48,428 nucleotides of DNA from Bacillota bacterium (lineage in GTDB: Bacteria; Bacillota; Dehalobacteriia; UBA4068), in assembly GCA_024679955.1 (NCBI GenBank), contig JAILCQ010000002.1, positions 1 to 48,428 of the forward strand, read 5' to 3'. Each line of letters starts with the position of its first letter. The stretch's first letter is position 1. The position numbers and the translations under genes were made by a program. This document shows, piece after piece, positions 12,587 to 46,796 of this stretch. The notes under the pieces were generated by a model. The model was not told the DNA's origin. It did no database searches and was given only the letters and a program-made list of their open reading frames with translations.

Positions 12587-12653
12587 AAAAATACCGTTTT
12601 CCCAATAAAGCGAAAGGCCTGCCCTTGCTTTTTTATGGGAAAACGGTATTTTT
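12587..12653 (-). terminator. terminator of the selA/tRNA-Sec transcript (bidirectional)
   Basis: AAAAATACCGTTTTCCCA (12587-12604) and TGGGAAAACGGTATTTTT (12636-12653) are perfect 18-bp arms. Read on the minus strand, the second arm ends in a T run directly after the tRNA 3' end. In the plus direction it could also stop readthrough from pncB. Confidence 0.8.
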
Positions 12654-23369: not shown

Positions 23370-24176
23370 TTATTCCTTTAATTCTTCTGTTTTATAGACG
23401 TTATAGCCTTCATACCTATAACTGGCATCGATACCCTTCATATAGACCTCTCTGTCGTGAATCCGATCCGTGAGCGCCGGCTTCAGCAAGGCTTTGATCT
23501 CAATATCTTTGACCGGGCTGCGTTGCATGGCCAGCAAATAATCCTCTTTATCCACTTTGCTCCAGTCTATGACTTGCCCAAGTTCCTTTTTCAATATGGC
23601 GTCCAGCCATATGCGCATGCTGCGTCCATTGCCCTCCCGGAAGGGATGGGCGACGTTCATTTCCACATATTTTTCTATGATATGATCGAAGGTATCCTGG
23701 GGCATTTTCTCAATATGGTCCAATGCCGGCTTCAGGTACAGGACAGGCGCAAAACGGAAATTACCTTTGGCAATATTGACGCTGCGCATCTTACCGGCAA
23801 AATCGTAAATTTCGGAGAAAAGATAGCCATGGATCTGCGCCAAGCCTTTAAAAGTGCCGGTTTCAAAAGCATCGATCATTCCTGTATCAAATAATTCCAA
23901 TGCTTTTTTCTTGCTGATCCGCTCTTCTTCCCGTTCAAAGTAGGCGGTATCCTCTTTTATGGCTATCACATGATAAAGGCCTTGATCTTCCAGGATTTGC
24001 AGATTGCAACTACGGCACAGTTCCCGCAGTTTTTGCATAGCGGCAGGCGCGGGTTTACTGCGGCCATTCTCCCAGCGGTTGACCGTAGCAAAGCTGACCT
24101 GCAACAATCCGGCCAACTCCATCTGGGAAAGGCCCAGGCGGCAACGAATATCTTTTATCATTTGGGCGCAGTTCAT
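23370..24176 (-). CDS. HTH-Fic protein, class III-type adenylyltransferase
   Basis: Fic proteins usually transfer AMP from ATP to a hydroxyl of a target protein. The 268-aa protein joins an XRE-type helix-turn-helix (about residues 5-55, LGLSQMELAGLLQVSFATVNRWENGRSKP) to a Fic domain with the intact motif HPFREGNGR at 177-185. Near the C-terminus S252-x3-E256-G257 (SYRYEG) matches the inhibitory motif of class III Fic proteins such as that of Neisseria meningitidis, where it blocks ATP binding. ATG 24176 is used because GGAGG lies six bases before it; a TTG two codons upstream is less likely. An inverted repeat in the promoter suggests control by its own HTH domain. Confidence 0.92.
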   Translation of the reverse strand: MNCAQMIKDIRCRLGLSQMELAGLLQVSFATVNRWENGRSKPAPAAMQKLRELCRSCNLQILEDQGLYHVIAIKEDTAYFEREEERISKKKALELFDTGMIDAFETGTFKGLAQIHGYLFSEIYDFAGKMRSVNIAKGNFRFAPVLYLKPALDHIEKMPQDTFDHIIEKYVEMNVAHPFREGNGRSMRIWLDAILKKELGQVIDWSKVDKEDYLLAMQRSPVKDIEIKALLKPALTDRIHDREVYMKGIDASYRYEGYNVYKTEELKE

Positions 24177-24208
24177 GGCCAACCTCCGTTAGACAAAGCT
24201 TTCGGCAG

Positions 24209-24265
24209 ATAGTATAACATATTTTTTATAATCCGGCAATATGATGCGAATAAATGTTATACTAT
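24209..24265 (-). promoter_or_regulatory. promoter and palindromic operator of the HTH-Fic gene
   Basis: The minus strand shows TTGCCG (24234-24239), 17 bases, then TATACT (24211-24216). The -10 lies inside ATAGTATAACAT (24209-24220), which is repeated inverted and without mismatch as ATGTTATACTAT (24254-24265). The arms are 45 bp apart centre to centre and bracket the promoter. A repressor bound to both could close it; the HTH domain of the Fic protein is the obvious candidate. Confidence 0.65.
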
Positions 24266-24306
24266 TTGCCTGCGGCGGCAAGATTTCCCCGCCCGCAAAA
24301 GGGAGA

Positions 24307-24337
24307 AGCCGGGGCAGGCCCATGGTCTGCCCCGGCT
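24307..24337 (-). terminator. terminator of the aldehyde dehydrogenase gene
   Basis: AGCCGGGGCAG and CTGCCCCGGCT form an 11-bp stem with a 9-base loop. On the minus strand it is followed by TCTCCCTTTTG, a weak T run. Confidence 0.7.
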
Positions 24338-24385
24338 GCCGCTTATTGGGCGGCAAGAGATAGGAAAGCCAGCGCTATGCTATGC

Positions 24386-25885
24386 TTATTTTTCCGGATA
24401 GAACCCGGTGGCTTCTTCATCCAGATTGATGAAGATATTCTTCTGCTGGGTGTAGGCGTCCAGGATGCTCAAATCGGTTTCCCGGCCGATGCCGGACTGC
24501 TTATAGCCGCCGAAGGGCGCGCCGGCCGGGATCTGATTGTAGGTGTTGACCCACATACGGCCGGTCTCAATGGCGCGGGACACCCGGATGGCCTTGCTGA
24601 TATCGGTAGTCCAGACCGCGCCGCCCAGGCCGTAGACGGAATCGTTGGCCATGGCGATGACATCCTCCTCTGTCTTGAACTTGATGACGCAGGCCACGGG
24701 GCCGAAGATCTCTTCCTGGGCCACCCGCATATCATTGGTCACATTGGTGATCAGGGTGGGCTTCATGAAGCAGCCCTTGGCGTTTGGCCCTTCCGTAAAG
24801 CGAGCGCCGCCGCAAGCGATGGTGGCGCCTTCGGCCTTGGCGATATCCACATAGCTGAGGATCTTCTTCATCTGGTTCTCATCCACCTGGGCGCCCATCT
24901 GCGTGTCCATACTCATGGGATCGCCCACATTGACGCTTTCAAAAGCCTTGACGGCGGCCGCCACGAACTTGTCGTAGATGCCCTCCTGGACAAAAACGCG
25001 AGAACCGGCGCAGCAGACCTGCCCCTGGTTAAAGAGGATGCCGATCTGCAGGCCGTCGATGGCCTGCTCGAAACGGCAATCGTCGAAGTAGATATTGGCG
25101 CTTTTGCCGCCCAGTTCCAAGGTAGCGGGGATAAGCTTGTCGGCGGCGGCCTTGGCCACGTCCAGGCCGATCTCCGTGGAGCCGGTGAAGGCCAGCTTGC
25201 GGAAGCCGGGATGATCCAGCATGTACTGGCCGGCCCGGGAACCGCTGCCAGTGACCACGTTCAACACGCCCGCAGGCAGCAGGTCGCCGATGAGCTCGAC
25301 TAGACGCAGCACGCTCAGGGAGGTGGTGGAAGAGGGTTTGAAGACGATACAGTCGCCGGCGGCCAAAGCGGGAGCCAGCTTCCAGGCGGCCATCAGGAAG
25401 GGGAAGTTCCAGGGCACGATCTGCCCCACGACGCCGATGGGCTCCCGAAGGACGATGCTCAGGCTGCCGCCCTTAAAGCCAATGCTGTTCAGCATGGTGG
25501 CGGAGCCTCTCTGGGTGAGGACGGCTCCGGCGAAGTAACGGAAGTGTTCACAGGACCAGGGGATATCTACGATGGAGGTCTCCCGGATGGGCTTGCCGTT
25601 GTCCATGGACTCAATGGCAGCCAATTCCCCGGCATTTTCCTCGATGACGTCGGCGATTTTGTTCAGCAGCGCTGCCCGGTCGTTGGCTTTCCAATCTTTC
25701 CAGGCAGGGAAGGCGGCCCAAGCGGCTTTTACGGCGGAATCTACGTCCTCCTTGGTGGCCTGGGCGCATGCAGCCAGCTTTTCTCCGGTGGCGGGGTTGG
25801 TGGTAACGAAGGTTTTGCCGTCAGAGGCAGGGACCCATTTGCCGTTGATGAAAAGATCATACTTTTCCTTCAGTTGCACGCTCAT
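24386..25885 (-). CDS. NAD(P)-dependent aldehyde dehydrogenase
   Basis: The 499-aa protein is a full-length class I/II-type aldehyde dehydrogenase that oxidises an aldehyde to the acid. Visible motifs are the cofactor region GQIVPWNFPFLMAAWKLAPALAAG, FKPSSTTSLSVL and FTGSTEIG, the general base in ATLELGGKSANI, and the catalytic Cys in FNQGQVCCAGSRVFV around residue 300. The substrate cannot be told from sequence. It stands alone, with GAAAGGGG before the ATG and its own terminator. Confidence 0.95.
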   Translation of the reverse strand: MSVQLKEKYDLFINGKWVPASDGKTFVTTNPATGEKLAACAQATKEDVDSAVKAAWAAFPAWKDWKANDRAALLNKIADVIEENAGELAAIESMDNGKPIRETSIVDIPWSCEHFRYFAGAVLTQRGSATMLNSIGFKGGSLSIVLREPIGVVGQIVPWNFPFLMAAWKLAPALAAGDCIVFKPSSTTSLSVLRLVELIGDLLPAGVLNVVTGSGSRAGQYMLDHPGFRKLAFTGSTEIGLDVAKAAADKLIPATLELGGKSANIYFDDCRFEQAIDGLQIGILFNQGQVCCAGSRVFVQEGIYDKFVAAAVKAFESVNVGDPMSMDTQMGAQVDENQMKKILSYVDIAKAEGATIACGGARFTEGPNAKGCFMKPTLITNVTNDMRVAQEEIFGPVACVIKFKTEEDVIAMANDSVYGLGGAVWTTDISKAIRVSRAIETGRMWVNTYNQIPAGAPFGGYKQSGIGRETDLSILDAYTQQKNIFINLDEEATGFYPEK

Positions 25886-42558: not shown

Positions 42559-43087
42559 AGATATAATTCCACCCGTTCTTAAATCAATTGATTCGCGGCA
42601 TCATAAAAGCATAGAGTATACGCATTTTCTGTCCAGGAAATCCCTACCGCCGGCATGTTATAGCGGACAACCTGAAAACATACGGCATATCCGGGAAAAC
42701 TGCAAACCGGTTGTTTTACGGTTTCCCTATTCTCGCAAACAGATGATCTATAATATCTGTTTATTTTATCATACAATTCCAATACTAACGCTTTACTTAT
42801 AAACGATCCTCTCCGTCCATTCTTTTTTCGTTCTTTCATATGCATAGCGGTATCAAAAACCAATTATACGGCGGCTGCATCACCCAGCCGCCGTATAATT
42901 GCCTCGTCAGCTTACTTTTATCGTACGCTTCCGGCGATTTCAACCGCAGCCGGCGACATCGCGACAAGCGCAAAACACAGTAAACAAATCTGCGGCATGG
43001 AAAATAAAAGAGGGAAAAACGATTTTCACACCGCAGATCTGCTCAATTTTTCAAGCTTTTAAGTAAAACTACACAAGTAAAAACCGC
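42559..43087. other. 528-bp intergenic region
   Basis: No gene is supported. A 94-codon frame on the minus strand (42579-42863) has no ribosome binding site and starts inside a terminator stem, so it was not accepted. The region contains the strong hairpin at 42861-42901 and, between about 42700 and 42800, AT-rich sequence where the kinase promoter is expected. The part 42902-43087 shows no clear feature. Confidence 0.5.
42861..42901 (-). terminator. 17-bp perfect hairpin, probable bidirectional terminator
   Basis: The arms CAATTATACGGCGGCTG and CAGCCGCCGTATAATTG pair without mismatch around a 7-base loop. On the minus strand GGTTTTTG follows. It probably ends the transcript of the membrane protein gene at 43088. 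Confidence 0.7.
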
Positions 43088-45156: not shown

Positions 45157-45194
45157 AAAAACCTCTTTTGTCCGGAAAGACAAAAGAGGTTTTT
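45157..45194 (+). terminator. strong bidirectional terminator
   Basis: AAAAACCTCTTTTGTC and GACAAAAGAGGTTTTT pair over 16 bp around a 6-base loop, with A run and T run on opposite sides. Confidence 0.88.
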
Positions 45195-46751: not shown

Positions 46752-46796
46752 AAAAACCTCTTTTGCCATGCCTGACGAAAGAGGTTTTTGTTTTTT
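46752..46796 (+). terminator. terminator between convergent genes
   Basis: AAAAACCTCTTT and AAAGAGGTTTTT pair over 12 bp around a 14-base loop, followed by GTTTTTT. It works for the small basic gene and, with the A run on the left, probably also for the DMT exporter gene. The arms repeat the sequence of the terminator at 45157-45194. Confidence 0.85.

What the first reader, a model, noticed from the sequence alone, without database searches (positions are those of the whole stretch)
24209..24265. Perfect 12-bp inverted repeat brackets the Fic promoter
Seen: ATAGTATAACAT covers the -10 box, and its exact inverted copy lies 45 bp away, centre to centre, just beyond the -35 box. Inference: the HTH domain of the Fic protein may bind both and repress its own gene, so promoter state and AMPylation state could be linked through oligomerisation.
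Basis: partly seen in the sequence, partly recalled or inferred. Interest (0 to 1): 0.5.

Follow-up and report, generated by a model that had tools for sequence, protein, structure and literature searches.

The report
Split operator of an HTH-Fic enzyme
A bacterial gene for a protein-modifying Fic enzyme that carries its own DNA-binding domain lies behind two mirror-image DNA sites that its relatives keep, so the enzyme probably switches off its own gene, and the distance between the sites seems to depend on which enzyme is attached.

Summary
The repeat is real and exact: on the minus strand ATAGTATAACAT-N33-ATGTTATACTAT, one arm over the -10 of the HTH-Fic gene, the other 14 bp upstream of the -35. 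Its core, TATAACAT-N33-ATGTTATA, occurs once in the genome. The window and L021 spacers share 12 of 33 bases. None of 113 distinct Fic upstream regions without this HTH has fewer than 3 mismatches at that spacing. HTH relatives support the reading: fusions to DUF3990 have the half-sites at N24 (3 of 4), and stand-alone HTHs have them abutting at N0 (12 of 59 with at most one mismatch, about 0 expected; 5 of 49 in the part not used to find the pattern). Best reading: an autorepressor operator whose spacing is set by the fused enzyme's oligomer. Closest precedent: CccR, footprinted at AGATAATCAT-N26-ATGATAATCT. Coupling to AMPylation state stays inference, with CbFic2 as precedent. No binding was tested.

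The parts
24209..24220 (-). Proximal arm ATGTTATACTAT over the -10; conserved core ATGTTATA = 24220-24213
24254..24265 (-). Distal arm ATAGTATAACAT, 14 bp upstream of the -35; conserved core TATAACAT = 24261-24254
24221..24253 (.). 33-bp spacer between the arms, not conserved except near the -35
   Evidence: 12 of 33 identical to L021; alignment
24234..24239 (-). -35 hexamer TTGCCG
24211..24216 (-). -10 hexamer TATACT, inside the proximal arm
24183..24187 (-). Ribosome-binding site GGAGG
   Evidence: by eye
23370..24176 (-). HTH-Fic gene, 268 aa: N-terminal HTH_3 plus class III (NmFic-type) Fic
24069..24092 (-). Predicted recognition helix, residues 29-36 (FATVNRWE)
   Evidence: third helix of the model H29-36; residues kept in all three homologues
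23613..23648 (-). Fic motif H177-R188 (HPFREGNGRSMR)
23406..23423 (-). C-terminal inhibitory motif S252-G257 (SYRYEG), aligned to the S182..E186 motif of NmFic

Best explanation
The repeat is the operator of a self-repressing enzyme gene. Shown by sequence comparison: two TATAACAT half-sites face each other across the promoter, 40-41 bp apart centre to centre, in all three genes of this HTH-Fic type that I found, and the same half-site stands before other genes that carry this HTH. Inferred: one HTH of an HTH-Fic dimer or tetramer binds each half-site. The half-sites are about four helical turns apart, too far for the HTHs to touch, so the Fic oligomer bridges them, and the protein on the arm over the -10 blocks RNA polymerase. 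Less certain inference: since class III Fic oligomers are the AMPylation-inactive form and dilute monomers the active one (NmFic), the form that represses would also be the autoinhibited form, so one assembly step would silence enzyme and gene together.
For: Exact core pair at N33, N33 and N32 in 3 of 3 HTH-Fic promoters, in register with -35 and -10. Of 115 distinct Fic loci with at least 230 nt upstream, the two with the HTH match exactly and none of the 113 without it has fewer than 3 mismatches at N32-33. Unique in the genomes of the window and of L021. Same half-sites before HTH relatives: N24 in 3 of 4 HTH-DUF3990 genes (2 of 3 beyond the one in which I first saw it), N0 in 12 of 59 stand-alone HTH genes with at most 1 mismatch against about 0 expected. 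Recognition helix kept. CccR, a Fic-HTH protein, is a footprinted and reporter-tested precedent with the same layout. NmFic and EfFIC oligomer data from passages.
Against: No binding or expression data. Only three HTH-Fic genes are known to me. The proximal half-site overlaps the -10 and would be partly conserved anyway. 47 of 59 stand-alone HTH genes lack the palindrome at 1 mismatch; by source the hits are 7 of 10 from genomes (the set in which I saw the pattern), 5 of 40 from viral contigs, 0 of 9 from plasmids and phages. L285, an HTH-DUF3990 gene, lacks the N24 pair. Fusion does not always split the site: two HTH-helicase fusions have an imperfect N0 site. Searching viral contigs by DNA alone, 1 of 80 N0, 0 of 80 N24 and 0 of 80 N32-33 hits precede such an HTH gene. 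For the coupling: CccR's authors report independence of the two activities.
Confidence: 0.8

Rival explanations
1. The arms are bound by another regulator of the cell, such as a zinc-uptake (Zur) type repressor, not by the Fic protein itself.
For: The gamma-proteobacterial Zur box GAAATGTTATANTATAACATTTC contains the same 8-bp half-sites (PMC2706843, passages).
Against: The Zur box has them in the other order and 1 bp apart; ATGTTATA-N-TATAACAT does not occur within 3 mismatches at this promoter. The Bacillus-group Zur box differs (TAAATCGTAATNATTACGATTTA). The pair occurs once in the genome, unlike a regulon, and goes with the HTH, not with Fic genes in general.
Confidence: 0.08
2. Only the proximal arm matters: a simple operator over the -10, the distal arm being accidental or auxiliary.
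For: Many stand-alone HTH relatives appear to use a single compact site near the -10. L105 has a further compact pair ATGTTATA-N5-TATAACAT over its -10.
Against: The distal core is exact in all three promoters, at N33, N33, N32, although it overlaps no promoter box and the spacer has drifted. N24 pairs recur in DUF3990 fusions.
Confidence: 0.08
3. Chance repeat, or the ends of a small mobile element.
For: The window holds 10 other perfect 12-bp inverted repeats within 60 bp; the arms are AT-rich.
Against: 6 of 20,000 local shuffles; same core and spacing in two divergent homologues with different flanking genes by eye; no other exact copy in the genome; no flanking duplication seen by eye.
Confidence: 0.04

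Closest known systems
CccR of Yersinia pseudotuberculosis (PMC9755527; passages seen)
   Same: One protein with Fic and HTH domains; two inward-facing half-sites split by a long spacer near -35 and -10; negative autoregulation and need for the dimer shown there by experiment.
   Different: CccR is a class II Fic with a C-terminal HTH; its half-site is AGATAATCAT and its spacer 26 bp. Here a class III Fic with an N-terminal Xre-type HTH, TATAACAT, 32-33 bp.
CbFic2 of Coxiella burnetii (PMC10628234; passages seen)
   Same: Fic enzyme with an HTH whose DNA binding drives dimerisation; the dimer is the deAMPylating form.
   Different: Class II, C-terminal winged HTH, DNA not a defined operator in the passages seen; no promoter repeat found there by the term search.
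NmFic and EfFIC, class III Fic enzymes (PMC12894286, PMC6408439; passages seen)
   Same: Fic core: 58% and 65% identity in structural alignments, inhibitory glutamate, auto-AMPylated tyrosines and oligomer-interface glutamates aligned.
   Different: No HTH domain in the matched chains, which start at the Fic part.
Stand-alone small Xre-type HTH proteins of this subfamily
   Same: HTH 35-48% identical to the window's in the seven such rows aligned plus L132; 12 of 59 have TATARCAT abutting ATGYTATA within 1 mismatch.
   Different: No enzyme domain; half-sites abut instead of being split. On plasmids three of eight annotated or fetched regions have a helicase, type ISP restriction-modification or methyltransferase gene next downstream.

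Membership tests
CccR-like self-repressing Fic-HTH proteins | Fic and HTH domains in one polypeptide | tested here: met
   HTH_3 40.9 bits (cut-off 23), Fic 48.7 (24); order reversed relative to CccR
CccR-like self-repressing Fic-HTH proteins | Widely split inverted half-sites at its own -35/-10 | tested here: met
   N33 here, N26 in CccR
CccR-like self-repressing Fic-HTH proteins | Binding and repression of its own promoter | not testable with these tools
   needs EMSA, footprint, reporter
CccR-like self-repressing Fic-HTH proteins | Class II Fic with C-terminal HTH | tested here: not met
   class III model NF046029 312 bits (cut-off 230); HTH at residues 7-57 (less two residues)
Class III Fic (NmFic type) | Fic motif and C-terminal inhibitory helix motif S-x-x-x-E | tested here: met
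   HPFREGNGRSMR and SYRYEG aligned with NmFic
Class III Fic (NmFic type) | Concentration-dependent tetramer, auto-AMPylation | not testable with these tools
   interface glutamates and tyrosines aligned only
Zur operator | ATGTTATA-N-TATAACAT | tested here: not met
   not at this promoter within 3 mismatches; box from PMC2706843
Type II toxin-antitoxin module | Separate antitoxin gene next to the Fic gene | tested here: not met
   neighbours on the same strand are a 499-aa aldehyde dehydrogenase-like gene and a 245-aa channel-like gene, by eye; no family search of them was run

The most novel reading that the evidence does not exclude
One HTH subfamily forms a modular operator code in which the fused enzyme is the ruler: half-sites abut for the bare HTH (N0) and are split by 24 bp for DUF3990 enzymes and by 32-33 bp for class III Fic enzymes. 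Operator occupancy then reports the enzyme's oligomeric state, so the same assembly step switches off both catalysis and transcription: a one-gene, toxin-antitoxin-like circuit without an antitoxin.
Probability: 0.33. Interest if true: 0.8.

Novelty: new variant of a known kind. Interest (0 to 1): 0.55.

Why it matters
Class III Fic enzymes such as NmFic are inactive as oligomers and active when dilute, so what sets their concentration matters. Here the gene carries a conserved, testable operator that goes with the enzyme's own HTH. Comparison with stand-alone and DUF3990-fused relatives gives a quantitative prediction (spacer 0, 24, 32-33) that can be tested by moving domains or changing the spacer, and supplies a short DNA for asking directly whether DNA binding changes AMPylation.

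Tried and rejected
Mirror-image promoter: the distal arm puts a TATACT on the + strand, but the scan finds no + strand promoter there; rejected. Mobile-element ends: rejected. Zur box: rejected on order and spacing. A regulon: rejected, the pair is unique in two genomes. In 295 relatives of L021's genome the loose pattern (N28-38) occurs in 24 genomes (25 sites); the reversed control occurs in 31 by my count of the rows, so outside HTH-Fic promoters it is at chance level. By printed lengths 11 of the 25 sites have N32 or N33, two of them the HTH-Fic promoters.

More full-length HTH-Fic genes were sought and not found in the class (43 genomes, E 1e-90), a phylum sample (398 genomes; besides the window 13 matched at E 1e-50, none before residue 42), relatives of L105's genome (295), an order sample of L021 (344, E 1e-109), plasmids (best 20 of 1576 records listed), phages and viral contigs. 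In the larger searches only up to 6-8 candidates per genome were scored, so these are not exhaustive. Of 303 genome contigs stretches, 80 loci were kept. Two Enterococcus plasmid hits reaching back to residues 28 and 49 are annotated as 606-nt Fic genes that start later; no HTH.

DNA-first scans of viral contigs were uninformative (80 readable loci each, of 94, at least 120 and 106 stretches). HTH-DUF3990 fusions were not found on plasmids or phages (hits cover the DUF3990 part only). The palindromes as letters were in no paper of the held library; searches for Fic with HTH gave CccR and CbFic2.

Rows dropped: one search removed duplicates and loci with under 230 nt upstream (128 loci matched, 115 kept). 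One search dropped L308, L351, L353 (duplicates) and L317 (short), leaving 81.

Full report
Observation. On the minus strand the region reads ATAGTATAACAT-N33-ATGTTATACTAT, then a leader and the Fic gene. The promoter is TTGCCG-17-TATACT. The gene starts, most likely, at ATG 24176 behind GGAGG. It encodes 268 aa with an N-terminal HTH_3 (40.9 bits, cut-off 23) and a Fic domain (48.7, cut-off 24), best described as class III NmFic-type (NF046029, 312 bits, cut-off 230). The upstream gene on the same strand (24386-25885, aldehyde dehydrogenase-like by eye) is followed by a hairpin (arms 24296-24320 and 24324-24348), so the Fic gene appears to have its own promoter.

Is it more than chance? By itself, modestly: 6 of 20,000 local shuffles hold a perfect 12-bp inverted repeat within 60 bp, but the window has 10 such repeats elsewhere. 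The telling test is conservation. A scan of species genomes found one other full-length gene (L021, 82% identical), and a search of 295 relatives of its genome a second (L105, 64%). Their promoters read TATAACAT-N33-ATGTTATA and TATAACAT-N32-ATGTTATA, with TTGAGC-17-TATAAT and TTGAAC-17-TATACT in register (hexamers by eye). In the alignment the two 8-bp blocks are invariant, while the 33-bp spacers of the window and L021 share 12 bases. Flanking genes differ by eye.

Control. Of 128 Fic loci with a match, 115 are distinct with at least 230 nt upstream. The two full-length ones match exactly. Of the 113 whose match lacks this HTH, none has fewer than 3 mismatches at N32-33; at any spacing from 0 to 40 the best is 1 mismatch in 1 of 113 and 2 in 8. 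The pair occurs once in the window's genome and once in that of L021.

Following the HTH. Two lone-Fic loci (L074 = L114; L108 = L290) carry, 1.3-1.5 kb upstream of the Fic match, a gene with a similar HTH fused to DUF3990 (Pfam DUF3990 96-108 bits in the four genes below; that DUF3990 is ADP-ribosyltransferase-like is recalled). The L074 promoter holds TATAACAT-N24-ATGTTATA. A search with the HTH alone in 225 relatives of L021's genome gave 16 genomes. Of four distinct HTH-DUF3990 genes, three have the pair at N24 with at most 1 mismatch (L074, L290, L296); L285 does not. Stand-alone HTH proteins (at most 100 aa) can have the half-sites abutting, TATARCAT|ATGYTATA. Among 59 such genes, 12 have this at N0 with at most 1 mismatch; shuffles give 0 to three decimals at N0, and no other spacing has more than 1 gene. 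By source: 7 of 10 from genomes, 5 of 40 from viral contigs, 0 of 9 from plasmids and phages. I saw the pattern first in the genome set, so the viral and plasmid/phage set, 5 of 49, is the independent part. Fifteen other genes (longer products) gave none at 1 mismatch and three at 2 at N0; two of those three are HTH-helicase fusions. So the half-site goes with the HTH, strongest in its closer relatives, and Fic and DUF3990 fusions have the two half-sites pulled apart to their own distances.

Limits. 47 of 59 stand-alone genes lack the palindrome at this stringency. By DNA alone in viral contigs, 1 of 80 N0 hits, 0 of 80 N24 hits and 0 of 80 N32-33 hits precede such a gene, so the motif means something only beside the HTH. 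The proximal half-site overlaps the -10 and would be partly conserved anyway. Three HTH-Fic genes are few; the searches were not exhaustive.

Mechanism. Shown by comparison: a conserved split operator that goes with the HTH. Inferred: binding, repression, bridging by the Fic oligomer. The half-sites face inward with centres 41, 41 and 40 bp apart, close to four helical turns, so two bound HTHs would lie on one face of the DNA but could not touch. CccR is the experimental model: half-sites split by 26 bp near -35 and -10, 3.3-fold higher promoter activity in the deletion mutant, dimer needed (PMC9755527, passages). For the coupling: NmFic is an inactive tetramer when concentrated and active when dilute (PMC6408439 and PMC12894286, passages). 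The residues changed in the NmFic mutants E102R and E156R, titled 'dimeric form', align with E172 and E226 here, and the auto-AMPylated Tyr183 and Tyr188 with Y253 and Y258 (my numbering, offset 3 from chain to published positions). These residues are also kept in lone Fic proteins, so they allow but do not prove the coupling. EfFIC's oligomeric state was left open by its authors, and its deAMPylation was not lowered by concentration. CbFic2 shows that DNA can drive a dimer and its deAMPylase mode (PMC10628234, passages). Its authors suggest CccR could be read that way; CccR's own authors concluded that the activities are independent.

Structure. AlphaFold2 with 32 aligned sequences, of which only two carry the HTH, gave mean pLDDT 87 and pTM 0.68: four helices and two strands before the Fic domain. 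The Fic part matches EfFIC and NmFic (65% and 58% identity). Placement of the HTH relative to Fic is not reliable and no complex was modelled.

Novelty. Self-repressing Fic-HTH proteins are known (CccR). New here, as far as the searches show: a class III Fic with an N-terminal Xre-type HTH and such an operator, the operator sequence, and the spacing series 0 / 24 / 32-33 within one HTH subfamily. The held library lacks most subscription journals.

Noticed in passing
L074:160-2076 (same locus as L114, L288); L108/L290: HTH-DUF3990 gene upstream of a lone class III Fic gene, with an uncharacterised 139-aa gene between them in L074; its own promoter has the half-sites at N24.
   Followed up: partly
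L105, just upstream of the gene: A third half-site: ATGTTATA-CTTTT-TATAACAT over and after the -10, besides the N32 pair.
   Followed up: no
L301, L302; L322, L325, L339 (viral contigs): The same HTH subfamily fused to helicase/ResIII domains (L301, L302) and to HsdM-type N6 methyltransferases (L322, L325, L339), by Pfam.
   Followed up: partly
L032, L053: A small gene for an excisionase-like DNA-binding protein (by eye) lies directly before a lone class III Fic gene.
   Followed up: no
G014:C20:2-247 (L006): A genome of the same family has the last 82 residues of an 83% identical Fic protein at a contig end, so its HTH and promoter cannot be seen.
   Followed up: no
window 12587-12653, 42861-42901, 45157-45194: Other long perfect inverted repeats of 16-18 bp in the window, perhaps terminators; AAAAACCTCTTT also recurs at 46752.
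   Followed up: no
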